The notes under the pieces are model-generated. The model did not search any database. It saw only the letters and a program-made list of their open reading frames with translations, and was not told the origin of the DNA. This document shows, one piece after another, positions 39,601 to 62,600 of a stretch of 64,000 nucleotides of DNA. Source of the stretch: a virus; the IMG/VR virus record IMGVR_UViG_3300044642_000074, positions 1-64,000 of that record; one strand, 5' to 3'. The position numbers and the translations under genes were made by a program. Position 1 is the first letter of the stretch, and every line of letters starts with the position of its first letter.

Positions 39601-42227
39601 TGGACGCTAGAGAGTCAAGACTATTTTCAATATCAAAAGGTTACTTCTACTTGTTTAACTCAGGAGTACGTGACTTTTTTGTAGAGAGTGACGTTAACAT
39701 AGCATACCGTGATTGGGATGACCAGCTCGGCAGAAGACACTACGACCCCTATGAAATTGCAGATCTTAACTTACTGATGAGATCTGATGTAATAAAAGAA
39801 AGTAACATATACAAGTATGATTACTCTTTAAGTATATCTAAGCTTTTCAACTCTCAGATTACCTGGGGTAACATGCTTCCTAGGGACTATGATCCTAAGA
39901 AAGCCGAGACATGTTATGTGTATTATCCTAATAGGGTAGTCTACTCTTTGCCTCAGCAGGATGACAGTCGTAAAGACAGTTGGAGAATATATCTTGCCAA
40001 TAACTATAAGACAATGGGTGGTAGAGTTACTGCCATCAAACCAGTAAATAAGACTGGGGCATTGTTTATGATGGCTTTTCAAAGTCCACTCCAGTTTATG
40101 GGAGTAGAGGAACTAAAGCTTGACGCAACTGGTGCAAAGATTACTATAGGTGACGGTGCTTTATTTTCAGGTCCGCAACAGCTACAGGCTATTGTAAACT
40201 CTGATGAAAGCTATGAATACGGATCTTGCCAAAACAGGTTTGCTACCGTTGGTTGCACACATGGGATATTCTGGGTCAGCCAGAACCAGGGTAAAGTATT
40301 TCAGTACCAGGGAGGTTTAAAGGAAATCTCTAGAGACGGAATGAAATGGTGGTTTGCAAACTATCTTCCTAGTGAACTTCTTAAATTATATCCTAACTAT
40401 CCTTTGTATGATAATCCTGTTGCAGGTATTGGAGTACAGATGATTTATGATAATACAAATGAGATAATCTATATTACTAAGAAAGACTATAGACCAAAGA
40501 GAAAAGACTTGTTATATGATCAGGGTGGCTTTTATTATGAGGGCCCAGGGTCAACAACAATTAATACATGCCCTCCGGGTTATACCCTACAGGGGAATAC
40601 CTGTGTAGCTAATACTGCAACGTGTCCTCCAGGTCATCAGTTGATCAACGGAGTATGTACCAAAACTGAAACGATAGATCCAATTCAGTCTGGTCAGGTA
40701 GTAGAAGTATCTAGAACACCATTTGAGGTTTACGGTAATCAAGGTACAAGAGTATACAGTGCCGCTACTGTTGGTTCTACTTCTACTCTTTTAAATACAA
40801 GCAATCCATTTTGGATACGTCAAGTTAGTCCGGCAAACTGGAACTCACTTACTGCAGATCAGAAACAAGCGTTTGATCTTAACAATGGACCGGTAAACCG
40901 TATCTCTATATGGGGGCGTACACTATCCGGATCTACTGTACTAAATAACTATAACCACAGCGGTGCTGATCTAAATCCTGTTAGTCAATGGATTGGCTTC
41001 GATGTTTGTATAAATATCACAACAACTAAGACATACTATGTAGCTATTGCTGCAGACAATGATTACAGGTTTTCTTTGGACGGAAACCTGATCTTAAGTG
41101 ACACTGGTGGTACTACTGCTACTTTTAACTTCCTTCATATCTACCCTGTAACTATTACAGCTGGTAGTCATATACTTCGTTTGGAAGGGAAGAACAACGG
41201 TCAGAAAGCAGGATTTGGTTGTGAGATTTTTGACCTAGATAACAGACCAACTGGTACCAGTGTGGTAGATTTCTTAAATGCTCAGACGAGCTACGATAAT
41301 TTGATTGTAGTCTTTACAACCAGAAACGTAACACAGTTTTCTTCTAACCTGTACACCTGTCCTGTTGGATATGGTTTAGCTAACCCTACCTGTACAGAAC
41401 CTGTATGTCAAAGAATTACTACAGCTGCTCCTGTGTTTGATACAAAGCAGCCTACTGTAGTTACAGTAAAAAATAAGATCTACTGCAACTTTGATAAAGG
41501 TGAATGTTGGGAAAATGCTAGCTGGACTATTTCTTACGATCCTAAGACACAGACCTGGATATCATTTCATGATTGGATTCCAAGCTTCCTGATTCCTGGT
41601 AAGGCTCACTTCATGAGCGTTAACATGAACTCTATATGGAAGCATAACATTCGTTGTGATAAGTACACTAACTTCTATGGTATAGACTATCCGTTTGAGG
41701 TAGAGTTTGTATCAGCTACCGGTCAGGTAGTTAATTCTATGAGAAACATAGAGTACTTAATGGAAGCATATAAGATGCACAATGACTGCCGTGATAAGTT
41801 TCATGTACTAGATGCAAACTTTGATCAGGCTATTATACATAATTCAGAACAAATATCCGGTCTTCTTGAACTTGAACTGAAAAGCAAGACTAATCCTGTA
41901 GCTATGTTGAGCTATCCTCAGGTCCGTACTCAGTCTATTGGAATAAACTATTCTAAGGAAGAGAATAAGTACAGGTTTAATCAGTTCTGGGATATCACGC
42001 GTAACCGCGGAGAGTTCCAGGGAGTGAATGTTCCGATGTTTAACACAGAACCAAACGGATATAAGTTTCAAATAAACCCTACTTATGTGAACTATAATAA
42101 ATCTCCACTGGAGCGTAAGAAGTTCAGACATAACGTAAACAAGGTATTCTTAAGAAAATTAGTAAGTAATGATACCAAGTATCTATTTAAGATATCTAAC
42201 CAAAAGATTCTACAAAGTCCTAGATAA
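36684..42227 (+). CDS. Tail muzzle/stabilisation protein with inserted PA14-like domain
   Basis: A 1,847-residue protein. The N terminus (NTFSKGMVKDFNDTFVGEGL, NAVNNSHDGQLGVIGNEPAN) fits the crAss-like muzzle or tail-stabilisation proteins, which form the distal tail tube through which DNA and cargo exit. The C-terminal part (CNFDKGECWENASWTISYDP, WISFHDWIPSFL) also fits. Between residues ~1290 and ~1590 lies an apparent insertion: two CPPG...C repeats starting at C1296 (CPPGYTLQGNTC, CPPGHQLINGVC), then a PA14-like beta domain near 1440-1520 (YYVAIAADNDYRFSLDGN, SHILRLEGKNNGQKAGFG), which may bind sugars. It overlaps the next gene by one base. Confidence 0.82.
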   Translation: MAEQRQNNPGAVTNTFSKGMVKDFNDTFVGEGLWTHARNAVNNSHDGQLGVIGNEPANLHCVTLPYDLIGVIHLRDDQWAVYTTNDVDSEIGVFDESQCTYTKKVNDRCLNFRRTNLITGISRRRFDCERPVYWADGRNPDRFMDLDNPPFKFTESIQNGCVTKTYTNQLDCEKIRLASLVTAPCIVLEKGKGAGTLPNGSYQVCLAYTINQVKITDYMGLSEVQSVFHHDNVKSSLEVKITQVDQNFDEFELVILAQINGETIARRIGYYSTNQGTIYIDTLSNESPTVPINQVVVRTEPIERSDTMYQVNDYALRVGVYTKYKFNYQLQANNIRSSWVAVEYPAEYYKKGGNNTGYMRDEQYAFFIRWVYNTGERSESYHIPGRSALPTEKDIVVNADAYEAANGVTVQRWQVYNTATIEGRTATLLADGGRVIGTGRMGYWESTEKYPDDRPDIWGNLCGQPIRHHKFPDETCDTAATNRVLDTFSQSGSKIVILGVQFENITHPLDNNGNPITSIVGYEILRGSRQGNKTVIGKGLLNNMRTFKLPEDTTNERLFQNYPFNDLRADSYLTTEFQSGTNGSPDVKSSKMTGYKKNIFSFHSPETTFSQPFVNATELKVYQQLSGTATGRFIIPHKHPKFKLPTNFADTISDVLGVVQQIADITSLIAGAAPTINLQGTSDLPFTQSLITPHRQESLSGIFAGVTSGWVGTTGAPGADTAASSRRSIANTAITVANGIVMVTLAAFKANVTSEQVFRLILALVPYRQYAAQYVSHGFYNQAVNQPLDFRRRFVTNTSYVGADVATFGSSYQIYNLNRNRFVAVEIPQATELNPPTVVDNSRFIISERNAELNKDLTSTISSLYGALKIPLDAQYGQLESIKQIPISSCVFNTVANTTSKFITPVLFGGDIYINRFTEKNNMLFFNTWLMGEPNGAELDYTLYFSMPYSRFWVNNTDLNGGLFEGASNFRVLDARESRLFSISKGYFYLFNSGVRDFFVESDVNIAYRDWDDQLGRRHYDPYEIADLNLLMRSDVIKESNIYKYDYSLSISKLFNSQITWGNMLPRDYDPKKAETCYVYYPNRVVYSLPQQDDSRKDSWRIYLANNYKTMGGRVTAIKPVNKTGALFMMAFQSPLQFMGVEELKLDATGAKITIGDGALFSGPQQLQAIVNSDESYEYGSCQNRFATVGCTHGIFWVSQNQGKVFQYQGGLKEISRDGMKWWFANYLPSELLKLYPNYPLYDNPVAGIGVQMIYDNTNEIIYITKKDYRPKRKDLLYDQGGFYYEGPGSTTINTCPPGYTLQGNTCVANTATCPPGHQLINGVCTKTETIDPIQSGQVVEVSRTPFEVYGNQGTRVYSAATVGSTSTLLNTSNPFWIRQVSPANWNSLTADQKQAFDLNNGPVNRISIWGRTLSGSTVLNNYNHSGADLNPVSQWIGFDVCINITTTKTYYVAIAADNDYRFSLDGNLILSDTGGTTATFNFLHIYPVTITAGSHILRLEGKNNGQKAGFGCEIFDLDNRPTGTSVVDFLNAQTSYDNLIVVFTTRNVTQFSSNLYTCPVGYGLANPTCTEPVCQRITTAAPVFDTKQPTVVTVKNKIYCNFDKGECWENASWTISYDPKTQTWISFHDWIPSFLIPGKAHFMSVNMNSIWKHNIRCDKYTNFYGIDYPFEVEFVSATGQVVNSMRNIEYLMEAYKMHNDCRDKFHVLDANFDQAIIHNSEQISGLLELELKSKTNPVAMLSYPQVRTQSIGINYSKEENKYRFNQFWDITRNRGEFQGVNVPMFNTEPNGYKFQINPTYVNYNKSPLERKKFRHNVNKVFLRKLVSNDTKYLFKISNQKILQSPR

Positions 42228-45200
42228 TGAATAAGCTGCTCCAACATATTATGAATGCGGGGGATGTATCAGATAAGTTTCTGGTGCATTTCAATAATGG
42301 AGTACCTCTTACTAAGAAACCTTTAGTAAAAGCTCAGCAGGGTATTCAAAACGTTACCGTAGATGGTAAACGTATGAGGACAGATTCTCCTGAATATAAA
42401 AATCTTTACAGTAAAGGCATAGGCCGTTGGATGAAAAAAGATGCTTCAGGAAACTGGGTACCTGGTACTGCCAATGATTCTGGGTCTGAGTTTGTATCTT
42501 CTCCCAAGACATTAGAAGAAGTTGTTGTTAAGAGTACAGTTAAACCTAACTCACTTGGAGCATACTCTTCCAAATTCTATAGAGAAAATCCTTTTGAAAC
42601 CTTCTTTAAAGATAGGTATGGTCAGATAAAAGATGAATTTACTTCAGAGCCTATATGGGCTCAACGTGCAGTAGGTGGATGGGATAGAGAAAGTAGACAG
42701 AAGAATATACGTGAGCAGATTCAACAAGAGTATGATAAGAAGTATAGTGATTACTTAACCCAAAGATTACTTCAAAGAAATCCTCAAGGAGACCAGTACA
42801 GGGATGATTGGTTATCTAATAAGAACTTTACTAACAGGGAACTTAGTATACTTACTGCTAATGAAAACCTGCCTCAGCCAAACTTATATTCTCAGGGTGC
42901 TCAGGGTCTCTACAATACTGCTGATATGTTGGCTCTTGGAAAGCTTCCAGAGCTTGCTGTACCTGGTATAGCTAAATCTGAAGTTGCTCAGTATAACAGT
43001 CCTTTACTTACTTTTCAACCGCTTTCTATTCCAGCTAAGATGGTTCAGTCTTTTTACACAGACGACTATACATTTAGAGACGCTGTGAGAGGTACTCCTA
43101 ATAAAGCAAGTCTTACGGAAGATATAATTACTGATCCTTTAACATGGTGGACACTTGGTGGTAAATCATTACTTACTGCGGCTGGTAAAGCCAGTGGTAT
43201 AAATACTGCAAGGTTTTTTCCTGAAGTAAGTAACTTTTCTAAACTATCTAAGCCACCAAAAACACAGTTTGCTCAAGATGCTGATGACTTTTTAAAAGCT
43301 GGTAAAGAAGTAGTAGATCCTGAAACAGGTGTATCTAAATTTGTTTATGAGCTGGATGATGTATCTACTGCTTCTGATAATCCTTTTGTTTGGTATCCTG
43401 ATAGTCAAGCAGGTAAAAAACCTTATACAGGTGGTGGCGTGGAGCTTACATTTGATGACTTAGTAGATGTATCTGATATTCCTGTTCTTAATAACAAGAT
43501 CAGTCCTATTGGTACTAGTGGATCAAAGACCTTTGGAAGTACCTTATCTAATATTTACGATAAAGGTAAGAGCAAGCTTATGAAGCTTTTTGCTAATACA
43601 AACCAATGGGATGTTTCTAAACCACTTGGTACTTTGCAAGATTATAAAAGTTGGGGTAACAATATTCATAAAGAACTTGATTATGTAGATCCTGCTCTTA
43701 TCCGTGATGCTCACAAAAAAGCTATAAAATATTTTAAATCTACCGGACAGTGGGGGAATATGCAAAACTCACCTAGAGAGTTCGGTCTTTTTATAAGGGC
43801 AGAACTAGCTGATAAAATACCATCTTTTGCAAATCCTGTAGTAGTTGATCCTGCAACGGGAGCTAGATTCAATTATGGACAAGAGGCTTGGCATCCGAGT
43901 TTATACCCAGATAATCAGCAAGCCATGTATTTTAGCACGGTTAGAAACGAGGCTGAATATTACAAAGATGCTCCATTTGCTGCACAAGAGGCTCAACCGC
44001 TTTCTTGGGGGTATGATGCAGAAAAATTTACTCCGCAAGAAGCTAATCTTATAACAGGGTATGCACATGGTTATGATAATCCTCTTAATAATGTGTTTAG
44101 AGCTAGATCCACAGTAGGAGCAAAAAAATTTTATGAAACTAAAGGTAATGAGTTAAATACAGCTGTACAGAAGAATAAGTTTCCTGTAGCTACTCAAGTA
44201 AGAAGAGGTGTTGATAACTATCCTGTAGAGATTTTAGATCCAGTTACCTATAAGCCAACTGGTGTTTTTAAGAGACGTTCTGAATTAGGTGTAGGAGATG
44301 TATTTAAAGATGAAGGTTTTATGTCCACTAGTCTTAATACTAACCATACATGGGGAACAGCCGATGCTTCAGAACTTATTGATATACCCGGAGGCGGAGT
44401 TCAGTCTTATGCTTTTCCTAACGCTATGTCAAACAGCCCTTATTTTCCCGAGGCTGAGGCTATATTACCAAAAGGATTAATACGTAAAGTAGAAGAAGTA
44501 AGAGAACCCGTAAGCGGTGGTAGTTATGGTTTTCCTAATAATGCCAGAATCAGAACTAGTATATTAAATCCTTATAGTGTTTTACTTCCAGTAGTTGGTG
44601 GTGCGGCTGCAATACAAGGTCAGAAAAAACAAGGTGGTCCTATTGTAGACCCGCGTGGTCAGTGGGCTCATCCTGGTAAAGTTACTCGTATACCTGGATC
44701 AGATATTACTATGCAGGGAGTAAACTACCCGGTGTATGCCAAACCTAACAAAGGCAAAGGTGGTATGATGTATCCAGGGGGGAATTACTCTTTCCCCAAA
44801 GCTGATTATGTAGATGAGTATCCTATGATGCAAAGAGGAGGTCAATATATAGACTCTGTGTTTAACGCTAACCGAAATCTTAACTGGGTAAAACGACTAT
44901 ATGATAAAAACACACCTAGTATCCAGATTCCTGGAGAGCCTTACCCGTCTACCCACTACATGGAATATGCCGATAACCGCGTATATCCTCAAGTAGTACA
45001 GATGCCAGATGGTAAGTTGAAACACCTGGGTAAGAACGCTTACGACTATGCTGACTCTACTAAAACATACATTAAGTTTCCAACAGAAGCTGATGCTAAA
45101 TGGTTTAGTCAAAACTATAAGAAGGGTAAAGGCGTATTAGGTAACAGGCAATTAGGAGGTCAGTCTGCAGGGAAAAGTCCTTACTTTTTTATGAACATTA

Positions 45201-46135
45201 ATAATGATATGGAAGAAAGATTTCGTGCCCTTGATTATGTTAAAGATGAATATAACAAGGGTATGGATTTTCATACTAAGTGGCTTAACTCACCTATGTA
45301 CAAGAGTATGATTAACGCGTCTGATCCTGCCAATGCAAAACAAATTACTGACCAACGTAAAAAACGTCTTTCTGCTGTGACTATGAAATACGTTGATACT
45401 GCATATGGCCCAGATATTAGGACTGGAGCTACAGCTGATAATCTAGGAAATATAAAGGTATACCCAATAGGTGTTGGTCATAACAGCGTTGGTACTCATG
45501 AAATATCTCATGTAACAGACAATGGTCCAGGGCTCGATCTTATACCTGCTAAAGATCAAATTAACATTTTAGAAAAAGCTTATGATAAAGTAAACTTACC
45601 AAAGTATGAAGCTGATAAAGAGTATGTTGATTATATTACTAAACCAACAGAGACAAGAGCTAGATTAAATCAAATACGTCAGCAAGCTTCTGAAAATAAA
45701 TTATATGACCCTTTTACTCAAAAAGTAAACCCAGCTATATATAATAAACTTAAAAATTTTAAGTTTGATAAGTCAGTAGACTGGAGTCCTCTTCAACAGT
45801 TAAAAGAAGCTTATAGTGATCAACAGATTATGGAACTGCTTAATAGTGTTTCTAAAGTAAATACTAATAACGATATGCAAAACATGATGGCCAGTGGTGG
45901 ACAGCATGGCGGTCTTGACCGTTGGTTTGCAGAGAAATGGGTAGATGTAAAGACAGGAAAAGCATGTGGTAGACAAGAAGGTGAAAGCAGAGCTTACCCG
46001 GCATGTCGTCCTTCTAGACGAGTATCATCCCAGACACCAAAGACTTCTTCAGAAATGAGTCCTGCTGAGAAGGCTAAGTTTAAAAGGACTAAGACATCCT
46101 CAGAACGTATAAACTATAATCATAAAAGAAATTAA
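42227..46135 (+). CDS. Predicted ejected cargo protein with ADP-ribosyltransferase and zinc-protease domains
   Basis: A 1,302-residue multidomain protein right after the muzzle gene. Residues ~610-755 match ADP-ribosyltransferase exoenzymes: an N-terminal helix region (PQEANLITGYAHGYDNPLNN), R659/R660 in QVRRGVD, S700-T701-S702 in GFMSTSL, and E742-A-E744 in PEAEAILPKG, i.e. the complete R-STS-ExE signature of arginine-type enzymes. Residues 1091-1095 are HEISH with a downstream E1142 in KPTETRARL, a gluzincin pattern. The N-terminal ~600 residues are not recognised. Glycine-pair linkers (QRGGQY, QLGGQS) separate domains. The C terminus has a Cys/basic motif (DRWFAEKWVDVKTGKACGRQ). Position among cargo genes suggests delivery into the host, like the Alt enzyme of T4. 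Confidence 0.85.
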   Translation: MNKLLQHIMNAGDVSDKFLVHFNNGVPLTKKPLVKAQQGIQNVTVDGKRMRTDSPEYKNLYSKGIGRWMKKDASGNWVPGTANDSGSEFVSSPKTLEEVVVKSTVKPNSLGAYSSKFYRENPFETFFKDRYGQIKDEFTSEPIWAQRAVGGWDRESRQKNIREQIQQEYDKKYSDYLTQRLLQRNPQGDQYRDDWLSNKNFTNRELSILTANENLPQPNLYSQGAQGLYNTADMLALGKLPELAVPGIAKSEVAQYNSPLLTFQPLSIPAKMVQSFYTDDYTFRDAVRGTPNKASLTEDIITDPLTWWTLGGKSLLTAAGKASGINTARFFPEVSNFSKLSKPPKTQFAQDADDFLKAGKEVVDPETGVSKFVYELDDVSTASDNPFVWYPDSQAGKKPYTGGGVELTFDDLVDVSDIPVLNNKISPIGTSGSKTFGSTLSNIYDKGKSKLMKLFANTNQWDVSKPLGTLQDYKSWGNNIHKELDYVDPALIRDAHKKAIKYFKSTGQWGNMQNSPREFGLFIRAELADKIPSFANPVVVDPATGARFNYGQEAWHPSLYPDNQQAMYFSTVRNEAEYYKDAPFAAQEAQPLSWGYDAEKFTPQEANLITGYAHGYDNPLNNVFRARSTVGAKKFYETKGNELNTAVQKNKFPVATQVRRGVDNYPVEILDPVTYKPTGVFKRRSELGVGDVFKDEGFMSTSLNTNHTWGTADASELIDIPGGGVQSYAFPNAMSNSPYFPEAEAILPKGLIRKVEEVREPVSGGSYGFPNNARIRTSILNPYSVLLPVVGGAAAIQGQKKQGGPIVDPRGQWAHPGKVTRIPGSDITMQGVNYPVYAKPNKGKGGMMYPGGNYSFPKADYVDEYPMMQRGGQYIDSVFNANRNLNWVKRLYDKNTPSIQIPGEPYPSTHYMEYADNRVYPQVVQMPDGKLKHLGKNAYDYADSTKTYIKFPTEADAKWFSQNYKKGKGVLGNRQLGGQSAGKSPYFFMNINNDMEERFRALDYVKDEYNKGMDFHTKWLNSPMYKSMINASDPANAKQITDQRKKRLSAVTMKYVDTAYGPDIRTGATADNLGNIKVYPIGVGHNSVGTHEISHVTDNGPGLDLIPAKDQINILEKAYDKVNLPKYEADKEYVDYITKPTETRARLNQIRQQASENKLYDPFTQKVNPAIYNKLKNFKFDKSVDWSPLQQLKEAYSDQQIMELLNSVSKVNTNNDMQNMMASGGQHGGLDRWFAEKWVDVKTGKACGRQEGESRAYPACRPSRRVSSQTPKTSSEMSPAEKAKFKRTKTSSERINYNHKRN

Positions 46136-46146
46136 TTATATATCCT

Positions 46147-47958
46147 ATGGCTAACAAACCTAATAATCCTGCCCTTTGGTCTAAAGCTAAGTCTTTAGCT
46201 AAACAGAAATTTGATGTCTATCCCTCAGCCTATGCTAACGGCTGGGCAGCTAAGTGGTACAAAGGTAAAGGAGGTACTTGGCGTAAAGCTGAGTACGGAA
46301 TGGAAGTACCGTTTATGAATAACGGTGGAGAAAAAATGCCACCCGAGATTGCTCGTGCACGTTTTGCTGCAGCAGGTAATCTTGATAAGATGGGTGATTA
46401 TGGTTATGCTTATGGTGGAGATACACCTAAATATATGCAACAAGGTGGACAACAAGATCAGATTATGATGGTTATTCAGCAGTTTGCTCAAATGAATCAA
46501 GTTGATCCCCAAGAAGTTATACAGCAACTTCAACAGTTGCCTGCTGAACAACAACAAGCAGCTATTCAAAAGATGGCAGAAACAATACAACAAGCTTCTC
46601 AGCAGCAACCTGATATGGTGCAAGCTGCTATGGCTTATGGTGGATATACTACTGGTGTATTTGCTGATGGTGGAGAACCTGATGGGTCTATGGCCCTTGG
46701 TCAGATAGATGCTGCAGTAGATAAACTTCAGAAACTTCGTCAGTTTATTCAACCTGAGTCTGATCTAGAACCATGGGTAAGTTCTAAACTTACTAAGATG
46801 GATGATTATGCAGATGCCGTGTCTGACTACATGATGTATAACCCAGAAGCCCAGGGAGAGATGATGGAAGAGCCTCAGGGACTTCCTATGCAACAAATGA
46901 AAGAAGGTGGTATTCCTACCCGTTACAAGAACATGGGCTTTTCTAAAGTTGGGGCTAAGAAAGAATCTACCCGTCCTGGTAAAAAGTGGATGGTGCTAGC
47001 CAAGAAAGGTAGTGACTATAAAGTAGTACACGGTGGATACGATGGTATGAAGGACTTCTCTCAGCATGGATCTGAGAAACGTAAAGATCGTTTCTGGGAC
47101 CGTATGGGTGGTAAGAACTCAGCTAAAGCCAAGGATCCGTTTAGTCCTTTGTACTGGCATAAAAGATTTGGTACCTGGCAAGATGGTGGAGAGATATATG
47201 GTATGGGTGGATATATACCAGAATATGGCATGGGTGGCATGCCTTGTTATGAATGTGGTGGTATGTTTGCAGAAGGCGGAATGTATGATTGCCCTGATCA
47301 GGAGAAAGACCCTGTAACAGGTAAGTGTAAAGCTGAGGTTGTTCGTGGTAGAGAAGCAAATGCTGCTAACAAAGCAGCTAGTGCAGACATGAACGCATGG
47401 GCTAAGCAAGTTGCTGCTATGGATAAAGAAGTTGCTAAACAGAATGCTGCTCAGTATGCTGGACAAAAAAGTTTTGATTATGACTGGATGCAATCTCCTG
47501 TAGATAAAGCAGAGAAGAAAGCAGCTATTGCTCAATACAAACAATTTATTCAGCAGAACCCTAATGTATTTGTAGCAGATGATTCATCTGGGTACAATCC
47601 AGAACAGAAGTATATCATTGCTTCTAAGCTTAAGCAAAAATCAAGCACTCCAATGGGATCTAAAGCATTCCAGCAAAAGTTTAACCAGGATGCACGTTTG
47701 CTAGATCTTGGACGTATACAGTCTGACATTGTTCCTTTAATGGGTGGCTGGAGTGGAATTCAGAACTGGCTGTTTGGTAATAAAAAATTCGGTGGCTACA
47801 TAGGACAAGACGGAAAGCGTCACATATCTAAGACACCTACCTGGTCTGGAAATACCGGTTATCAAGAAGGTGGTCCTGTTCTAGGGGATGTAATGGATGT
47901 AACACCTGAACAGCTTGAAGTTCTTCGTGCTCAAGGCTATGACTTTGAAATAATCTAA
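46147..47958 (+). CDS. Glycine-pair-rich virion cargo protein
   Basis: A 603-residue protein. The N terminus (NNPALWSKAKSLAKQKFDVY, PSAYANGWAAKWYKGKGG) and the central block KKWMVLAKKGSDYKVVHGGY ... KDFSQHGSEKRKDRFWDRMG are motifs found in many phage virion proteins as I recall. Between them is a Gln-rich helical stretch near residues 98-160. Short linkers with paired glycines recur throughout (NNGGEK, AYGGDT, ADGGEP, KFGGYI, QEGGPV), with a dense run near residues 350-380 (YGMGGYIPEYGMGGMPCYEC). It is placed among crAss-like cargo genes and is probably packaged inside the head or tail. No enzymatic motif is visible. Confidence 0.7.
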   Translation: MANKPNNPALWSKAKSLAKQKFDVYPSAYANGWAAKWYKGKGGTWRKAEYGMEVPFMNNGGEKMPPEIARARFAAAGNLDKMGDYGYAYGGDTPKYMQQGGQQDQIMMVIQQFAQMNQVDPQEVIQQLQQLPAEQQQAAIQKMAETIQQASQQQPDMVQAAMAYGGYTTGVFADGGEPDGSMALGQIDAAVDKLQKLRQFIQPESDLEPWVSSKLTKMDDYADAVSDYMMYNPEAQGEMMEEPQGLPMQQMKEGGIPTRYKNMGFSKVGAKKESTRPGKKWMVLAKKGSDYKVVHGGYDGMKDFSQHGSEKRKDRFWDRMGGKNSAKAKDPFSPLYWHKRFGTWQDGGEIYGMGGYIPEYGMGGMPCYECGGMFAEGGMYDCPDQEKDPVTGKCKAEVVRGREANAANKAASADMNAWAKQVAAMDKEVAKQNAAQYAGQKSFDYDWMQSPVDKAEKKAAIAQYKQFIQQNPNVFVADDSSGYNPEQKYIIASKLKQKSSTPMGSKAFQQKFNQDARLLDLGRIQSDIVPLMGGWSGIQNWLFGNKKFGGYIGQDGKRHISKTPTWSGNTGYQEGGPVLGDVMDVTPEQLEVLRAQGYDFEII

Positions 47959-47961
47959 TCT

Positions 47962-50900
47962 ATGAAAATACGTATTACAAAAAAAGGGCTACCTAAAGCT
48001 CAGTGGTTAAACAGTCAACCTGGAGTTCAGTTACAGCTGCCTGCCAGTTCGCAACCTAACTTTGCATGGATGACATCTCAGCAGATGCAGAATTATCTTA
48101 TGCCTGCTGCTCCACAAACGTTACCTGTTAACAACACAAGCCTTCCTCCTGATGTTATTATTCCTAGGAACTTGTATCCAGCTATGACAGATGCTGAGAT
48201 GGCTCCTCCTGAAGTTCTTGATCAACAAAACCAAGTAAGTCAACCTGTTGATATAGCAGCTGCTTTAGGTATTGGACCAAAGAGAGAAGCTTGGGAAATA
48301 GAGCAGCAGAAAAAATATGATACCGATCCAAACTATGCATTGAAGTTTGATGATAGTGTTGGCTTTGGTATGCTTCAGGGGTATACAGATCCTAAGCGTC
48401 TTACTAGTAGGCAAGATCTTAAGAAGTACGTAAACTTCTTTAACAAAAAGTACGGTACGAAACTAAAGATGCCTACTTACAATCCAGGCTTAGCTAAGGC
48501 TGCTAACGCTGTTAGTACAGGTATTGGAGCTTTGGCCTTAGCTGGTAATGCAGTAGATTATTTAGAAGCTAATAAAAAAGGAAAAGAGTGGGAACGTTTC
48601 TTCCGTCAGCGTATGATGGAACCTGCTCCCAATACTGAGTTTGAAGGTATTGAGAATATTAACTCCGGAAGAATGTTTGAAAACATGCTACCTAAACCTA
48701 ATCAAGGACGTTTTGATTATGGTGGTGTAGCTAACAATATGTTTGATTCTATGAAAATACGTATTACATCTGCTCCTCAGTCCATGGAGTATGGAGGTCA
48801 GTCTAACTACGGACTTGATCTTGGTAGAAGAAAAATCTATACAGACATGCCTGAGTCCCAGGCTGAGTCAGTTACTAGTTCTGTAGGAGCTGTACCTAGA
48901 GCTATGGCGAATATTGAAGCTGAAGGCGGAGAAACTGTCTTTGGAGACATGGACGGTGATGGAGCTATGGAACATATGAACATAGTTGGTAAACGTCACC
49001 ATCAAGGTGGTGTACCATTAAATGTACCTGAAGGAAGTTTTATCTTTTCAGATACAGCTAAGATGAGAATCAAAGATCCTGCTGTTCTTGCTATGTTTGG
49101 TAAGACTATTACAAAAGGAAATAAAGGATATACTCCGGCTCAAATTGCTAAGCAGTATAACATAAATAAGTATAAAGCAGTAATGGAAGATCCTAATGCG
49201 GATCATGTTGCCAAAGCTACTGCACAGTTAATGGTAAACAATTACCGTAAGAAACTTGGTGGCCTTGCTCTGATACAAGAAGAGATGAAAGGATTTCCTC
49301 AAGGTATACCTCAAGTAGCTGAAGCTGCTACAGACAAACCTATGATGGCAAAGTTTGGCGGATACCTTCCGGAATATCAAACAGCAGGACAAGCTCCTCC
49401 TGTTATACCTCAAGCTTTTAGGATAACTTCTTTGACTCCTGAGGTACAAGCTGCGTTAGCTGAATTTGCTAGCCGTCAAAATCCTGGGGGTGGTCAAAAT
49501 ACAACAGTGTCTGCGTCTAATACCAGATCTCCTCAGGCTTTAGCTGATATGAGTGACCCAGAGTTCCAGAAGTTTATGGATCTGGTTAACAAGTATGATA
49601 ATAAGCAGAGAAAAGATGCTAGTTATATAAATTCTATGACAGATGCAGACGCTAAAGAGTTTGCCCGTCTTGCTACCAAGTTTGGTTTTAAAAGAACAGA
49701 CAAAGATGGTAAACAGCAGTATAGAGTTGTACAAGGATCTACTCCAGATTATAACTTTACAATAAAAGGTAAAGACGGAAAACCTCAAAAGATTGGATTT
49801 TTTGGTGGCTACCGTCCGCAGCAATACGAGCGTAGAGTTGTAGAAGATGTTCTTGGAGAAGACTCTGTAAAGAATATGAGTGAGCTAGATATCCGTAAAG
49901 CTTACTTTAAAGAACTTGGTGTTGATGTAAGTGGTATGAGTGATGATCAGTTAAAGGATTCTAAGAAACTTTATACTGATGCAAACTTTTTTCAAAATGT
50001 CTTCTATCCTAAGTTTACTCAAAGGTTTGGTAAAGATGATTACCGTAGCCAGCTTGGTGATGACTTGTTGATTGGTGCTGAGCACTATGATGCATATCGT
50101 AAAAAAGAGAAATCTCAGGATACTACCGTTATAGGTTATATCTGTAAGGGTGTGTCTGCAAATGGTGCTCCTATTGTAGAAAGTTCTAGCTTTAGAGATG
50201 AAGCTGCTTTGGCTGCAGCTGGTGCGTCTAAGTCATACCAAGTAGCTATCTTAAACTGTGGCAAAGACACTGATATAGATATAGATATTATTCCTGGAAA
50301 GAAGAAGCAACCTACTGACTTCATGACTCCTGATAAGCTTACGTTAATGGCTGCTGCAGCTATTCCACCAAAAGGATATTTTCCTTTTGTATCGGATATG
50401 CCGTTTAGACCGGGTCAACTAGCTTTAGAAGACTGGTTAAGCCAGGTTCAGAATATTCAACAGGGGTATAACACTTCAGCAAATATGTTGGGTACATACA
50501 ACCCTGGTACAGCTATGGCGTCTAACTTATCTTTCTTAGCAGGTCAGGCTGGTGATCAGACTGCCCAGGCTATTTCACAGGTAGGCAGCCGTAACGTTGA
50601 CAGATTCAACCAATTTGCAAACACTGAGACTCAGCGTAGACAGAATGTTGATGCATACAATACATCAGCCAGAGACAAACGCTGGGATGGGTACACTGTA
50701 ACCAAACAAAACCTAGATAATGCTCGTAGGAGATATCTTAATACAGTCACTAAAGCCACTAATAATATGTGGGCTAACCGTATGTACTTAGATATGATTA
50801 ATTCTGTTAATCCTTTCTTTAATGTAGATCCTAGATCTGGTCTTTCTTATTTTACAAATGATGGGTATACTACAAAAGATCTTGGAAGAAGTTCTGCCGG

Positions 50901-53614: not shown

Positions 53615-56600
53615 ATGATAGAAAACCTTTTTGAACAAGGCTTAGATAACGTTGACGTTCCTGAAAACTTGGAAGAAACTCCAGGTTTAGAACTTGGTAA
53701 TCTAGATCAGCCTGAAAGTCCTGAGCAAAGTCCATTAGGAACACCTGCTCCTGTTCAATCTACACCTTCGGTTGATCCTCCTACAAAGAAGTATAAGTCT
53801 TATGAGGCTGCTTTGGATGCTGCAGAACTTGGGGCTAAAAAGTTTTTTCCTTTTGCTGATACTGACTTCTTAAGATCCAAGACTGTTTCTGGTGATCGTG
53901 CCAGAAAGTATAACGATATGGAATATGGCTACCGTTATGGTGTAGACATGGATGACTTTTACGGGGAGATGGAAAGTCCGCTAACTACTTTTGCTAAAGG
54001 AGCAGGTAGATTTGTATTAGGTGTAGGAACCAAAGTAGGACAAGGTGCAGGTTTTCTTTTAGGTCTTGCAAACCCTCAGAATTGGGATGAAGATATTATT
54101 ACAAAAGCTTCCGATAACGGTATTACATATTTATTTGACCAGCTGGACGAAAAGACCAAGCAAGATTGGTTACCTACTTTTCAAGAAGCAGCTGATAGAG
54201 ACAAAGGTTTTTGGAATAAGTTTTTTACAGATGGGGATTTTTGGATGACTGATGCTGTAGACGGTGCTGCATTTCTAGTATCTGCATGGGTACCGGGTAT
54301 GGCATTGTCTAAGTTAGGTCTAGGAACAAAGTTAGCTCAAAGTCTTTCAGGTCTTAGACTTGGTGTTGGCGGAGCTGAAGCTGCTGTAGAAGGAGCAGCC
54401 ATGACACAGAACTATCTTACTAAAGCTAACAGTATCTTCAAAACAGGTATTGATAAGTTTAATGCTTGGGCTTTAGCAACAAGTTCTGAAGCTATGTTTG
54501 AAGCTGCAGAAGCAAGAAGGGGTATTATAGACTCATTGACTTATGATGAGTTTGGACGTTTGAAAATTAATCCTGTTACAGGAACTCCATATTCAGAAGA
54601 TGAGAAAAGAAAGATTGCCGGTGGAGCTGCTCAGAATAGTTTCTTACTTAATGCTGCTTTGCTTGCTGGTACAAATGCTTTAGAACTTAGATGGATAGGC
54701 TCTATGTTTGGAGCTGGAGAAAGAGCTGCTGTTAGTGGAATAACCGGTGCAACTAATCTTACAGACCGTATGGTTGCAGAACAGGCAGTAGGTAAGTTTA
54801 GTAAGTTTTTATCATCTGGTAAGGGTGCTTTTTTAAGTGGAGCTACACAAGGTATTCTTGCAGAAGGTTTTGTAGAAGAGAATGCTCAGCTTGCTATACA
54901 GCGTGTAAATCAGCAGTATGGTATGCAAGGTAAGGTTGCTGAATTTGGTAACCTTGGAGACTTTATAACTCAGTTTAAGAATCAAACCTTCAATGCTTTA
55001 ATCGGCAAGGACCCAGAGGCTGCTACTAGTATAGGTATTGGTGGTATTCTTGGTACGCTAGGAGGTGGTATATCTTCTACAATACAACAGCGTAAAGATA
55101 GAACTCTTACAGAACAGGTAATAAATGCATATAACTTAGCCCAGGATAACTGGCTTAAGTTTGGTAACATATATAAAACTCAAGATGTATTTACTGTAGA
55201 TGAACAGGGTACTACTGTAAAAACACAGCAGGTAGTCTTTGATCAAAACGGGGAACCTGTAGTTGATCAAGAAAAACTGTCGGGTGCTTTAACAGGTTAT
55301 ACTGCAGTAACAGCTGCACTAGATGAAGCTTCAAAACTACAACCAGGTTTTCAAAGAGATATACTTAGAGACACTGCTTTTGCAGATTTTGTAACAGCTC
55401 ATATTAATGCTGGTATAGAAAACACTGTTATAGATAAACTTAACAGTCTTCAAAAAGCTTCACCTCAGGATCTTGCAAAGCTTGGATTTACTGTTGGTGA
55501 AAACGCAGAGCAGCAGATCAATAGGTATAAGAACCTAGCATCTGCTATTATCAATCAGAACAAACTGATTAACTCTGATATCTTGGTTGACAATAGCCAG
55601 GAAGATAAAGCCCGTAAAAATTATTTATTAAAGCTTGCTGCTGACCAGGCTGTATATAAGAGCTTGGTAAATGAGAACCAGACAGCCCTAACCGAGATAC
55701 AGAATCAGTTAGTTACTTCTGAGAATTCTTCATTGTCAGATGGTTTAGTAGAACAGCTTAATGAGCTTGCTCAAAGGATCAAGTCTCAGGAAGAGATACT
55801 TCAGGAAATGGGTACTAGTCCTGACACTGGTATTCGTAAGCAGGTAGCTAATCAAGTACTTGATGAGCTGAAGCAAAACTACGAACAGTTAGAAAAAGAT
55901 AATACTACAACTATTCAGAGTCTTAAAAAAGACAAGGATGGTTTTTATGAATATGAAAAACCAGGCCGTAATATACCTGGTGTATATGATCAGTACAAGA
56001 AGAAAGTAAGATTAAAAGGTGAACTGCAAAACCAGATTAAGTTAAATGGCCTTGAGTGGTCTAAGTATGCTGATACTAAAAACGGTAAGCAGAACTTTTT
56101 ACAGATGTTCAAAGAGGACATTGTTGATCCTTTAACTCAAGCCGCAGCTGAAGCTCAGGACGCACAGTCTCAACTCGGAAAAACAATTACTCTTACTGGC
56201 ACAGATGCTAACGGTAATCCTAAAGCAATAGATATAACCGTAGGTAAACTGTACGTTGGTAAGTTTACCAAGTCAGAAAGATACAGAGGCAAGCAGATTG
56301 TATCTGTATTTAATAATGATAAGATTAAGATATTAGATATATCAGAGGATGGCTCTACCGTTACTATAAAGGCTAATGGAGAGGTTATGGAAATGTCAGC
56401 ACAAGAGCTGGCAGATATTGCTATACCAGAAAACTGGAGAGCGTTTGATTCTTTAACTGATGATCAGAAACTTTATTTGACCCTGCGTAACCAAGTAATT
56501 GAGTACAGGGTTTTAGAACGAGATGCATCAGGTAAACCTATAAAACAAGCTAATGGTAAGTACAAGACACGCGTTGTAAAAGGACGTGTGGCTATGAATA

Positions 56601-59600
56601 AGAACAGAACTGATCTTTTATTTACATATATAGACCCTACTACTAACAAGAAGAAGTTTGTGGACTTTGACATGAGGTATGTAGTAAATCAGGAGTCTCT
56701 TGAAAAACTTCTTACCCCTCAGCAGTTTTCTGTTAAATCTCAGGAGGAAAAGGTTAAACAAAAGTATGAGACTCAAAAGCAGTTTCTTACAAACCTTATT
56801 ACTGAAACCGAAGCTAAGCTAGCTGATGCAGATACTCGTCGTCAGGCTAATGTTCAGGAGTTCCAGAAGCTGGAAGAAGATCTGAAAGGTATGAGAGAAA
56901 TGCTTGAAGAAGCTGTTTCATTCCTTGAAAAGAATCCTTATACCCGTGGCAGAAAAAGCAATGCGTACAAGTCAATGGAAGAATTGTCTCAGCAGCTTAC
57001 TGATGAGATCAATAAAAAAGAGACCCAGCTTGCTGCTTTGCAAAAAGAAAAGGAAGATCTAACCAATCTTCTTGAAGCTCTTAAGAGCACTAATGAACTT
57101 TACTACCAAGGTCTTATTGAGTTGGAAGAGACTAGCCAGCCGTTTCTGGCTGATCAGTCCGGATCTATATTTGCTCAAGAACAGGCTGACTTGGAAACTG
57201 CACAAGACAATCAGGTAACCAGACGCTTTAACAGCTCTGAGTTAGAACAGATGATTGAGCAGACTGAAACTGAGGTAGAACTTATTGACGATAGAGTAAA
57301 CTATTTACAGGGATATATTAACCAGCTGAAAAAAATGCTGGATAAAGTCCTGGTATTTAAAGATGTAGCTGATGCGTTGATGGAGATCACTGATCGTGAG
57401 CAGCTTCGTAACGCTCTGAAGATGCTAGAAGACCAGAGCTCTGTTCTTGCAGACAATACTGATGTAACCAAAGTTGGTGATATACTTTTACCTTCTGCTC
57501 CTGTTGAGAACATAGCTCCTCAGGTAACTGATGTAATAAAGAAAGAAATTGTGAAGGCTCTCCGTAAAGGACTTGCCCGTGGAGATAAAGGTATAGAAGC
57601 TCAGTACACCCTTGAGTTGATTCAACGTTTAAAGGATTCTGTACAAGAGATGGATGATCTCATTCAGAAAAGAGATGAGCTTGCTCCTAAGTTAATCAGA
57701 CTAGAAACTGCCCTTCAGCAGAAGCAATTGCTTACTAGCTTGCAGGAAAGAGTAAACTTCTTAAAGACTATACAGGAAGGATTACTTGCCCAGTATGAAA
57801 TACGTCAGCAGGAAATACTTACCCAGCGTCAAAGTAAGACAGCTGAGGTTGTACAGAACCAGATGATGGGGGACAAGCTTGCTGATGAGGAAGTATCTCA
57901 GGATTCTGAAACGTACAACTTTGATGTTAAGAAGCCTCTTTTAGCAGTACATGGATTATTTACTACTGCCGGTAGGCACTTTGTAGATGATGCGGATACA
58001 GAGCTGAACATGGAAAACAATAACGCCCTGTTCTATAAGTTATCTGCAATGGCCGATTTGCTTACAGATGAGTTTTACTTGATGCCTGTAACTGCAGAGA
58101 ATGATACGTTTGGTATCAGACGTCCTGATGTTTACGGGGATGATATCAAGTTGGTTGTAGTAAAGAAAGTAGGTAATGAGTTTAAGTTTGTAGATGCAAA
58201 CGGTGAGGTTTTAGAAAATCCTACTAAAGAAACTTTAGTATATACTTCTATGCATGGTAATGCTACCATGTTTGGAGATAACGTACAGGCCGCAGTAGAC
58301 AGTGTAAAGAACAGCTTTACTACAAAAGGTCTGACTGATGCTGAGATCCTGGATCATATTAAAAGATTCAAAGCATTCAGAGATAAGATCAAAGCTGATA
58401 TAGAAGCCGGAAGACCTGCTTATGTACCTGTAATGGGTAAGAGCAAGGGTGTGCAAGTCTTTGTAGAAAAAGACGCTAGTGGTCTACCTCAGGAACTTCC
58501 TATGGAAGGAAGACTAATCAGTGAAGACACTGCTGACTATACTAACATGACCCACCCAGATGGGCAGGGTATATCTTTAGTAGTGTCTACTTTAAAAGAT
58601 AACACTGCTGTGGATGTAAAACCCGGTCGTGTTATAATGCAAAAAGCAGACGGTACCGGATTCCGCGTATTTAACCGTCAGCTTTCACAAGAAGAAAAAG
58701 ACAACTTTATAAATACACTAAAGGTTCTTACTGGCTTATTGGCTAGAAAGAATTCTACTACAAGTCCTCTGTCTAAGCAAGAGGCTTTGGATCTTAGTGA
58801 TGTTCTTACTTACTTGAACGGTTTAGTATTCTGGACTAAGCAGGATAGTATAAGTCAAAGTGAGAATAAGTTTTATATTAACCAGGACAATGGTATGCTT
58901 TACCGCGGCACCAATGCTGTAGCACTTACAGCAGATGCTATTGAAGCAGCTAAAGAAACTCTTACCAAGGATCTTTACCACCAGGTTAATAACAACCTGG
59001 TTAAACTTAATGATCCTTTCTTCCAGGTTATTGTAGATGAGAACATGAAGATCAGTAAGGTAGAGTACCAAAACTATGTGCATTACTTACTGGGTACTCA
59101 GGACATGAAGGGACAGAATCGTAGACTCGGTACACCAGTGGTCTATACCAATACTCCTGCATATAGTCCTGATGACTTGACACCTCAACTTAAGAGCGTA
59201 TTCTTTACTTACCAGGATCCTGATAATCCGATCATCCCTAAGGTTACCGTTACACAGAATAACATAGCGTTTCCTGCTGCACAGGCTCAGCCAAACGGTC
59301 AGCCAGTAGTAGGTACTGCAGCTACTGGATTTGTAATTAATCCTGCTGCTTTTGGTGCAACGGCACCTGCAGCATCTCAGCAGCAGACTCCTGCTCCTGC
59401 AGTTGCTGCCCAGAATCCTTTTATATTTAATCCTGCCGGTTTTACAGCTCAGCCTCAGGCACAACCTGCAGCTCAGCCACAACCCGCTGTTCCTGGTTTT
59501 GTATTCAATCCTAATCAGCCAGTACAACCTCAGTCTACTACTCAGGCTCCGGCCAATCCTTTTATCTTAAATACTGCAGAGTTTGTTGCTCCTCCTCAAC

Positions 59601-62600
59601 CGGTATTTCCTACAACTCAGACAGCAACACCTGGTGCAAGTACTCTGATAAGTACCATACTTTCTGATCAATATCAGCAAAGTATGCCTAGCATGTCTGA
59701 CCCTAGTACCAAGGTTAGCAATGTGTACAGAGAAGCTCTGGATACTTTGAAGAAAAGAGAAGACTTTAAAAAGGTAGCTAAATGGTTTAGTGAGAAACTT
59801 CCACAGATTTCTGTAGAGAAAGTAGCTGAGCTTATTGACGGTATTGCATGGGGGGCATTTAAAAACGGTGCGGTATATATATCTGAGAATGCAGAAGAAG
59901 GTACTGGTTTCCACGAAGCTTTTGAAGCAGTGTGGGGTAGTTATCTTACTGTAGAAGAACAGATGGAGCTTGCAAAAGCGTTCCGTTCTTTAGAAGGAGA
60001 GTTTACTAATCCGTTTACTAAAGAGACCAAACCTTACAGCCAGGCTTCTATGTACGATGTACGTGAGATGTTAGCTGAGGGTATGAGAGATTATATGTTA
60101 GAAAGAAGTACTTACGGAGGTAAGATACTTGCTTTCTTTAAAGAACTATGGAATGCTATTAAAGCACTAGTAGGACTTGGAAACATTAATGAAGCTGAAG
60201 AGCTAATTAATAATGTCTATAAGTCTATTAATCAGGGTAAGTACGTCAATGCTAAACAGGTTCGTGACGTTAGCATGATGGGTACAGCTTACAGTCAGGC
60301 TATCCCAGGTACTACGCAGGAGTTTAGTACACAGTTTACTGAAGGACTTACCGGGTTCTTCTTTATGAATCTGTATGCTAGCCAAAAGAATATTGACAGC
60401 TTACTTGATAAGTATTCAAATACCAACCAGCTTCTGAAACAACTCTTTGTTCAGAGTTTGGAAGACATGAAATCTTACCTGGTTGGACCTATGTCTAACT
60501 TTGCTCAGCGTTATGTTAACGTAGCAAGAAAGCAACTTGGTCGTGACCTTACACAGGATGAGCTGAACTTCTTATATACTCAGTATCTTAACCAGGATAG
60601 AAATGCATACCAGATAGAGCAGGCCTTCGGTCAGCCAAAGTATGTGTATGATAACCTAAAAGCATCTCTGAAGAAGTTTGGTTTGCAGTTTAAAGAATTG
60701 ACAAGCCAGGAAGATGAGGAGTTTATTAATAATAAAGAAGAATCTGTAACTGATGCTTTAGGTATCCGTGATGCTATTTTCATAGACCCCCGCAGACTTA
60801 CTGCAGTAAACTTCAGAATGTTACTTGGGTCTTTGACTTCAGATACCTATGACAGTGCATACAAGTCAGACACTAACCCGATGGGTATTGTGTTTGAAAA
60901 AAATAATCTTGGTCTTCCCAAGCTAATTGACTTTGATAATGTTCATAACATGCTTATCAATGAGCTTAATGGATCTGCTTCCCGTATTGAGGGAGGTAAG
61001 TTCATTGACGCTTTGACCGAGATGATGAACAAGCTTGATAAGAAATATAAAAACATTAACGGTACTTATAAGCCTGGATACGTATGGATCCAGCGTCTGA
61101 AGAACCGTTTGAAATATGCCGGTACTGAAGGAAGTTATTTTACAACTGCTAACATTACTGCAGATGATATAGCCTTGATGATCGGTTTTGAGAAGAGTTT
61201 GCTTAACAAGCAGAACCTTCCTGTAAAGACTATTATTGGAGAGAACGGTTACATCTTTGATACAGATCCTATTCAGACAAACTCTGAAAGCAAGATCCGC
61301 GAAGAGTGGGAAAACAATGTGATGACAAGTACTCAGCCTTTGTCCCGTAAGAGTCAGTCTAGTTTATTGGGTGTGGATGACAAGGGTATGATCGTTATTG
61401 ATCGTAGCAGCTACGCATATGCCGGTAACCCTGCTGATACAAGCAAGCCACACTTGTCTATGTCTAGACCTACGTTTAACCAGATAATAGAAATACTATC
61501 TGAGTTTGGAATTAAGTTTACGGCTAGCAATGAGGAGCTTAAGAAGCATAAGGTTGCTATTAACAGATCTTATAGTGCGATCAGGGAAAAGATCATAGAC
61601 GGTACTATTTCTACCATGCAAGATCTTTATGGTCGCAACGTAGTTAACAAGGCCATCACTGACCTAGTGGAAATCCAGGCAGAGTACAGTGCAGAGGATA
61701 ATGTACTAATGCATTTAACTGCAGAAGGTAAACCTCAGTACTCTATCACACTACCTTCCAACATTACATATGTACTTAACTCATTGAATGATGCTAAGAA
61801 TCTTGCTGACTTTGTAAGCAGCAATCCTCAGTTTGGTTTTGTAGACCAGAGCGGAAATGTTGCACTACATCCTTACCAAAGCAGAAGCTTGTTGTTAAAA
61901 CCAGGTGGGCTGATATTTGATGCAGATGGAAACAAGCGTCTTGATATGGATGTAAAGTACCATCTTATTTCTGGTGTGGCTGCTCAGGACAGTGACGGTA
62001 CAAATACGTCTGACCTGACTTACCCTGACCGTGTAATGCAGGAAATACATTACTTACTTAAGAATATTCACTATACTATTATCAACTCTGATAAGTCTAC
62101 AGAGTTTGCTTTAGGACTGAACAATAGTTTTGTCAGCTTTAGAGAAGCATCTGCCGGCATTGATTCAGCTGACTTTAGTAAGGTAATTAATATTTACATG
62201 GATCAGCTAGAAGATGAAATAGATTCAGCTGTCCGTGAACAGGAGCTTCCTAGTAATATACAATACTATTCTAAAGAAGTTAAGCAGCTTGGTCACTACA
62301 GGGATATCCTGGGGCCCGCGTTAGTAAAAGAGTTTACTGATAAGGTTCTTAAAAAGAAGATGACCAAGCAGGACTTCATGAACAAGCCTGCTGTACAGGC
62401 TGCTATAAAGAACCATATTACTGGTCTTGCTAGTGAGACCTTACAAGGCCTGATTGATCTAGATATTATTAAAGCTACCCAGGTTGGAACAACAACTGCA
62501 GGAAAACCTGTATTTGAATACAGCACCAAGGCTATCAGTCAGGAGCAGTTGTCTTTACTGAAGCTTGATGGTAGCCAGATGAACCAGGCAGATATAGAAT

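What the first reader, a model, noticed from the sequence alone, without database searches (positions are those of the whole stretch)
44030..44500. Complete ADP-ribosyltransferase signature inside a predicted injected cargo protein
Seen: R659/R660 (QVRRGVD), S700-T-S702 (GFMSTSL) and E742-x-E744 (EAEAILPKG) occur in the right order and spacing (40 and 40 residues), preceded by the helical PQEANLITGYAHGYDNPLNN typical of the toxin-type exoenzyme family. Known: R-STS-ExE is the catalytic core of arginine-specific ADP-ribosyltransferases. T4 packages such an enzyme (Alt) and injects it to modify host RNA polymerase. Inference: this crAss-like phage may carry an equivalent in its virion, coupled to a protease-like domain, to reprogramme a Bacteroidota host at entry. 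I know of no described case in this group.
Basis: partly seen in the sequence, partly recalled or inferred. Interest (0 to 1): 0.87.

Follow-up and report, generated by a model that had tools for sequence, protein, structure and literature searches.

The report
Phage cargo protein carrying an ADP-ribosyltransferase
A crAss-like phage encodes, right behind its tail-muzzle gene, a large patchwork protein, probably carried in the virus particle, that contains an intact protein-modifying enzyme of the toxin type (ADP-ribosyltransferase); in a related phage that slot of the patchwork holds a protease-like domain instead, which suggests that these phages swap the enzymes they deliver into host cells.

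Summary
ORF 42227-46135 (1302 aa) carries an ADP-ribosyltransferase (ART): PF03496 at 37.4 bits (cut-off 23.4). R660, S700, E742 and E744 are invariant in nine diverse homologues. An AlphaFold2 model (pLDDT 70) matches only R-S-E ARTs among its top 50 PDB hits. The phage is crAss-like but distant from described families, and the gene lies directly after the muzzle gene, the cargo-C1 slot of PhicrAss001. A relative of its 75-aa "cargo module" lies in Cellulophaga phi4:1 gp040, annotated as a virion protein by MS/MS, so virion packaging is well supported though not shown here.

The larger result: this gene is a mosaic. In 56 non-redundant relatives sharing the cargo module, the median pairwise alignable fraction is 10%. 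The ART recurs in one relative (L011). In another (L022) an HExxH zincin-like domain replaces it between the same carrier (64% identical) and cargo module. No PF03496 was found in 71 other cargo-module records or 20 named crAss-like and related phages.

Best reading: a polyvalent virion effector, delivered at entry, with an Alt/VIP2-type ART resembling MuF-fused phage ARTs. Arginine specificity, target and a Bacteroidota host are unproven. A new variant of a known kind.

The parts
42227..46135 (+). Cargo-slot protein, 1302 aa, carrying the ART (P0001)
   Evidence: ORF; directly after muzzle; PF03496 and DUF5872
42227..42307 (+). Leader MNKLLQHIMNAGDV... (aa 1-27), recurrent N-terminus of cargo genes after the muzzle
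   Evidence: 15 of 56 non-redundant cargo-module proteins start MNKLL
42344..43255 (+). Carrier region aa 40-343, upstream of the exchangeable effector
   Evidence: 59% id to L011 (followed by ART), 64% to L022 (followed by HExxH domain)
43580..43987 (+). Helix-rich stretch before the ART core (aa 452-587)
   Evidence: shared with L011 only; low-confidence model
43988..44578 (+). ADP-ribosyltransferase core, aa 588-784
   Evidence: PF03496 37.4 bits; AF2 pLDDT 70, pTM 0.72; top 50 PDB matches all R-S-E ARTs
44204..44206 (+). R660, catalytic arginine
   Evidence: invariant in 9 of 9 homologues
44324..44326 (+). S700, first serine of the STS motif
   Evidence: invariant in 9 of 9
44450..44458 (+). 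E742-x-E744, catalytic ExE
   Evidence: both invariant in 9 of 9
44558..44614 (+). Hydrophobic segment SILNPYSVLLPVVGGAAAI (aa 778-796) after the effector
   Evidence: highest hydropathy of the protein
44621..44845 (+). 75-aa cargo module (aa 799-873, RGQWAHPG...MMYPGG...)
   Evidence: 59-77% id in 9 relatives; 163 viral stretches; diverged copies in phi4:1 gp040 (MS/MS-annotated virion protein) and the gene after the muzzle of Leptolyngbya phage Lbo-JY46
44849..45157 (+). Module aa 875-977, exchangeable
   Evidence: in 14 of 55 other non-redundant cargo-module proteins
45158..45871 (+). Zincin-like module aa 978-1215; HEISH at 45497-45511
   Evidence: HExxH and the following ETRARL invariant in 3 relatives; 24 of 56 relatives have HExxH against 0.5 expected; no PDB profile hit
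45881..46132 (+). C-terminal DUF5872 part (aa 1219-1302)
   Evidence: PF19197 46.5 bits; 93% id to L011 with 69% third-position identity
36684..42227 (+). Muzzle-type virion protein (1847 aa), gene directly upstream
   Evidence: phrog_37948, phrog_15100; hits to phi4:1 gp042, annotated as MS/MS virion protein, and to the csAss muzzle
46147..47958 (+). Next cargo-slot gene (603 aa), also mosaic
   Evidence: DUF5754, DUF5872 N-half, phrog_220; modules shared with C1-slot genes of relatives
53615..64000 (+). Start of giant ORF (4604 aa, to 67426 of the record), putative virion RNA polymerase
   Evidence: single DxDxD motif SDFDIDK at aa 3622

Best explanation
The gene encodes a polyvalent virion cargo (effector) protein of a distant crAss-like phage. 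Shown by computation: it contains a fold-complete, residue-complete Alt/VIP2-type (R-S-E) ART between a conserved carrier and a conserved 75-aa cargo module, next to an HExxH module, and the architecture is shuffled between related phages. Inferred: the cargo module and leader put the protein into the head or tail lumen behind the portal; on infection it leaves through the muzzle ahead of the DNA, as proposed for PhicrAss001 gp45; the HExxH domain may cut the polypeptide and free the ART. In the cytoplasm the ART would use NAD+ to mono-ADP-ribosylate host proteins, helping early takeover together with the co-ejected virion RNA polymerase. The ExE pair favours an arginine acceptor. The target is unknown; host transcription or translation proteins are the likeliest by analogy with Alt.
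For: Family, fold and residues. Second independent phage (L011) keeps R, STS and ExE at 51-54% identity. Cargo position after the muzzle and before the giant vRNAP, as in PhicrAss001 gp44-gp50. The muzzle of phi4:1 and the four genes after it are annotated as virion proteins by MS/MS, and one (gp040) carries the cargo module. Effector exchange: ART in window and L011, HEFMH domain in L022, between the same carrier and cargo module. Mosaicism over 56 proteins. Nearest viral ARTs are fused to head-morphogenesis proteins beside a portal gene, and the best viral fold matches are minor-capsid fusions.
Against: No proteomics exists for this uncultured phage. The window protein shares no detectable sequence with PhicrAss001 gp45, and its cargo module was not found in 16 Crassvirales genomes. 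The model is medium confidence (pLDDT 70; loops around the ExE strand below 50). The ART was found in only two records, so it is dispensable in the group. The zincin assignment rests on HExxH and conservation only.
Confidence: 0.72

Rival explanations
1. The protein is mainly a structural or ejection protein (channel or cell-wall passage) and the ART domain is a captured, enzymatically silent or accessory module.
For: PhicrAss001 C1 is thought to form the ejection channel; relatives in this slot carry lysozyme-like stretches (L017, Lbo-JY46, read by eye); the ART is rare.
Against: All catalytic residues are kept in two diverged copies and match seven distant homologues exactly; loss of catalysis would normally let R, S and E drift.
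Confidence: 0.15
2. The ART is active but is not delivered by the virion; it is made late and acts in the infected cell or on competitors, like a toxin encoded with late genes.
For: Late-gene position does not itself prove packaging; MuF toxins have been proposed to act in competition between bacteria (PMC5576092).
Against: Fused to a module found in an MS-annotated virion protein of phi4:1; immediately after the muzzle and in the same gene order as PhicrAss001 cargo; no immunity gene was recognised beside it.
Confidence: 0.1
3. The ART modifies nucleic acid or a small molecule rather than protein.
For: The same phage encodes a stand-alone NADAR protein, a family that removes ADP-ribose from guanine in DNA (PMC11125620), and none of 47 relatives has such a stand-alone gene.
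Against: The family and fold matches are protein-modifying R-S-E toxins; phage T4 also has both Alt and a NADAR (gp30.3), and Alt modifies protein; only one long ART-bearing record is available, so the association is anecdotal.
Confidence: 0.07

Closest known systems
Polyvalent proteins of phages and conjugative elements (Iyer et al. 2017, PMC5512222)
   Same: Large multidomain polypeptides near virion genes, combining ART, zincin-like metallopeptidase, lysozyme and unknown domains, predicted to enter the host with the DNA
   Different: ARTs described there are of the H-Y-D (N4-like) clade; here it is R-S-E (Alt/VIP2). The paper does not mention crAss-like phages. The carrier and cargo module match no Pfam, PHROGs or NCBIfam family here
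MuF-fused ART toxins (phrog_16625; Jamet et al. 2017, PMC5576092; L123-L127)
   Same: Same ART family (31-32% id, R-S-E), virion-gene context, exchangeable effectors
   Different: No MuF domain here; the delivery part is a muzzle-adjacent cargo protein; Jamet et al. found no known toxin domain in MuF proteins of virulent phages
Phage T4 Alt
   Same: R-S-E ART of the Alt/VIP2 clade; proposed virion delivery; T4 also has a NADAR (gp30.3)
   Different: Alt is a head protein of a myovirus with known targets; here a patchwork protein of a crAss-like phage with an HExxH module and unknown target
PhicrAss001 cargo protein C1 (gp45; PMC10172136)
   Same: Gene slot directly after the muzzle, before C2 and the virion RNAP proteins
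   Different: No detectable sequence similarity; no enzymatic domain reported for gp45 in the passages read
VIP2 / C3-like exoenzymes (1qs2, 4tr5, 5urp)
   Same: ART fold and R-S-E residues
   Different: Free-standing secreted toxins; different acceptors; 14-21% identity in the structural alignments

Membership tests
PF03496 / Alt-VIP2 (R-S-E) ADP-ribosyltransferases | Profile match above curated cut-off | tested here: met
   37.4 bits against 23.4; L011 33.7
PF03496 / Alt-VIP2 (R-S-E) ADP-ribosyltransferases | Catalytic R, STS, ExE in order | tested here: met
   R660, S700, E742, E744 invariant in 9 homologues
PF03496 / Alt-VIP2 (R-S-E) ADP-ribosyltransferases | ART beta-sandwich fold | tested here: met
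   AF2 pTM 0.72; Foldseek 5urp E 1e-8, TM 0.61, top 50 all ARTs
PF03496 / Alt-VIP2 (R-S-E) ADP-ribosyltransferases | NAD+-dependent transferase activity | not testable with these tools
   needs enzyme assay
Polyvalent proteins | Several effector-type domains in one large phage protein near virion genes | tested here: met
   ART, HExxH module, DUF5872, cargo module; directly after muzzle
Polyvalent proteins | Zincin-like metallopeptidase | tested here: inconclusive
   HExxH conserved but no PDB or Pfam match
Polyvalent proteins | ART of the H-Y-D (Tox-ART-HYD2) clade | tested here: not met
   R-S-E residues instead; so a variant of the theme, not a typical member
MuF polymorphic toxins | MuF head domain | tested here: not met
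   no MuF hit in Pfam, PHROGs or NCBIfam
crAss-like phages (Crassvirales in the wide sense) | crAss TerL, portal, muzzle, giant DxDxD vRNAP | tested here: met
   TerL/portal 21-26% to Crassvirales; muzzle phrogs; SDFDID
crAss-like phages (Crassvirales in the wide sense) | Belongs to a described Crassvirales family | not tested
   no tree built; low identities suggest a separate lineage
PhicrAss001 cargo protein C1 | Sequence relationship to gp45 | tested here: not met
   no crAss hit with full protein; cargo module not found in NC_049977
Virion cargo | Present in particles | not testable with these tools
   indirect: MS-annotated phi4:1 gp040 carries the cargo module

The most novel reading that the evidence does not exclude
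A wide lineage of crAss-like phages uses the genes after the muzzle as an exchangeable effector cassette: a conserved 75-aa cargo module and leader load the protein into the particle, and recombination swaps in ARTs, zincins, lysozymes and unknown enzymes, a virion-borne counterpart of polymorphic toxin systems.
Probability: 0.45. Interest if true: 0.78.

Novelty: new variant of a known kind. Interest (0 to 1): 0.62.

Why it matters
crAss-like phages are the most abundant viruses of the human gut, yet what their packaged proteins do in the cell is largely unknown beyond the virion RNA polymerase. A defined enzyme in the cargo slot of a relative of this group gives a testable entry-phase function. 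The carrier/cargo-module frame offers a sequence handle for finding further injected effectors in this lineage, and possibly a natural protein-loading signal.

Tried and rejected
A first AlphaFold2 run with two sequences was unusable (pLDDT 41); the second, with nine, was usable. Peptide-pattern scans for more ARTs found only L011 and distant families. A scan of genome contigs found one cellular relative, in a Prevotellaceae MAG. Recent DNA transfer as the cause of the near-identical C-terminus was rejected: 93% amino-acid but 69% third-position identity to L011; my ungapped figures for L014, L015 and L019 in that call are shifted by one residue and are not used. A search of 396 Bacteroidota genomes for the cargo module, to learn the host, was empty and says nothing. 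A functional link between NADAR and the ART was considered and left as a rival only. My check of whether the NADAR matches in relatives lie in virion RNAP proteins failed for lack of flanking sequence read in the right strand.

Full report
WHAT IS THERE. The finding lies in ORF 42227-46135 (+), 1302 aa. The three motifs are at aa 657-663, 697-703 and 742-750. Pfam recognises PF03496 (ADPrib_exo_Tox) at aa 598-760 with 37.4 bits, above the curated 23.4, and DUF5872 at the C-terminus. The record is a 114,808-base IMG/VR virus sequence whose first 64 kb are the window.

THE ENZYME. One other record found by the muzzle search carries the ART too: L011, 33.7 bits on the protein, 51-54% identical over the domain, with R, STS and ExE kept. 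More distant homologues were found in another virus contig (L002), in phage proteins fused to a head-morphogenesis domain (L123-L127), in two further virus contigs (L130, L131) and in a Prevotellaceae MAG (L121). In the nine-sequence alignment P653, R660, G661, G690, D695, G697, S700, E742 and E744 are invariant, while position 659 is not; R660 is therefore the catalytic arginine. A two-sequence profile already finds C3larvin and VIP2 in the PDB; the nine-sequence profile finds VIP2 at E 5e-20 and the whole R-S-E toxin family. An AlphaFold2 model of aa 588-784 has mean pLDDT 70 and pTM 0.72. The 50 best PDB fold matches shown are all R-S-E ARTs, best 5urp E 1.1e-8, TM 0.61. Among viral models the best are minor capsid proteins and phage ADP-ribosyltransferases, including T4-type RNA polymerase ADP-ribosylases.

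THE PHAGE. Large terminase, portal and major head protein match phrog_6681, phrog_6547 and phrog_11589. Terminase and portal match Crassvirales members at about 21-26% identity, and the portal matches Leptolyngbya phage Lbo-JY46 at 33.5%. The gene before the ORF is a muzzle-type protein. A 4604-aa ORF from 53615 has one DxDxD motif, SDFDID, as expected for a crassvirus virion RNA polymerase (the motif's meaning is from general knowledge). I call it a distant crAss-like phage; no tree was built and the host is unknown.

WHY VIRION CARGO. In PhicrAss001 the order is muzzle gp44, cargo C1 gp45, cargo C2 gp46, then RNAP-associated proteins, all in the particle by mass spectrometry (PMC10172136). 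The window has the same order. In Cellulophaga phage phi4:1 the muzzle homologue and the four genes after it are annotated as structural from MS/MS. A profile of the 75-aa module at aa 799-873 finds one copy in phi4:1 gp040 (E 7e-8) and one in the gene after the muzzle of phage Lbo-JY46 (E 2e-13). So a protein with this module is annotated as a virion protein. This is inference for the window protein, not proof. Full-length similarity to gp45 was not detected.

THE LARGER PATTERN. Twelve IMG/VR relatives have muzzles 50-71% identical, but the next gene shares only pieces with the window's. All relatives in which that gene could be read share the cargo module, which occurs in at least 163 viral stretches. 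In 56 non-redundant proteins with the module, the median pairwise alignable fraction is 10%; of the 55 others, 14 share module 875-977, 14 the DUF5872 tail, 6 the HEISH module, 3 the carrier and 1 the ART; 24 of 56 have HExxH where shuffling predicts 0.5. The clearest swap is window against L022: carrier 64% identical, then ART in one and an HEFMHALQ domain in the other, then the same cargo module. L015 has a DHEIGH version with a similar tail. Modules also move between the C1 and C2 slots. PF03496 is absent from 71 further cargo-module records, from the other 11 IMG/VR muzzle relatives and from 20 named phages, 16 of them Crassvirales. Many records are fragments, so these are lower bounds.

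HOW IT PROBABLY WORKS. Packaged behind the portal, ejected early through the muzzle, refolded in the cytoplasm, perhaps cut by its HExxH domain (zincin processing is a theme of polyvalent proteins, PMC5512222), the ART would modify host proteins with NAD+. ExE favours arginine as acceptor (general knowledge of the family). Only the presence, completeness and fold of the enzyme and the modular architecture are shown; delivery, processing, activity and target are inferred.

WHAT IS KNOWN. Polyvalent proteins (PMC5512222) carry H-Y-D ARTs; Alt/VIP2 ARTs are often MuF-fused or T4-like, and about 3% of podoviruses had ARTs in a survey whose text does not mention crAss-like phages (PMC9503650). A 2023 review of Crassvirales contains no ADP-ribosylation, toxin or polyvalent term. 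Literature searches found no described case in this group, with the limit that only open-licence papers are held. Hence: new variant of a known kind.

Noticed in passing
G000:C1:112658-113149 (-), outside the window: Stand-alone NADAR protein (PF08719, 170 bits), a family that removes ADP-ribose from guanine; not found as a stand-alone gene in 47 related records. T4 likewise has Alt and a NADAR.
   Followed up: partly
L133 (G044), L134 (G035), L135 (G017), also G018, G026, G036: NADAR-like domain inside giant ORFs of 2600-5100 aa in related phages (two above the Pfam cut-off); whether these are virion RNAP proteins was not established.
   Followed up: partly
L121:1099-1899 and L123:4756-5529: ADP-ribosylglycohydrolase gene (PF03747, 121-125 bits) convergent with and close behind the ART gene in a Prevotellaceae MAG and in a phage contig; a possible reversal or immunity partner.
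   Followed up: partly
45881-46132 and 46147-46300: The two halves of DUF5872 are split between neighbouring genes: C-terminal half at the end of the cargo gene, N-terminal half (weak match) at the start of the next gene.
   Followed up: no
L017:14575-20073, aa 562-670: FYRG...LYTSNSLGTAEGYTYG stretch in the cargo protein of another relative, possibly a different (non-PF03496) ART; no Pfam hit.
   Followed up: no
47962-47998 and the same slot in relatives: The third gene after the muzzle starts MKIRIT(K/G)K..LPKAQ in most relatives, and LPKAQ-like motifs recur near N-termini of cargo genes; a possible sorting or cleavage signal.
   Followed up: no
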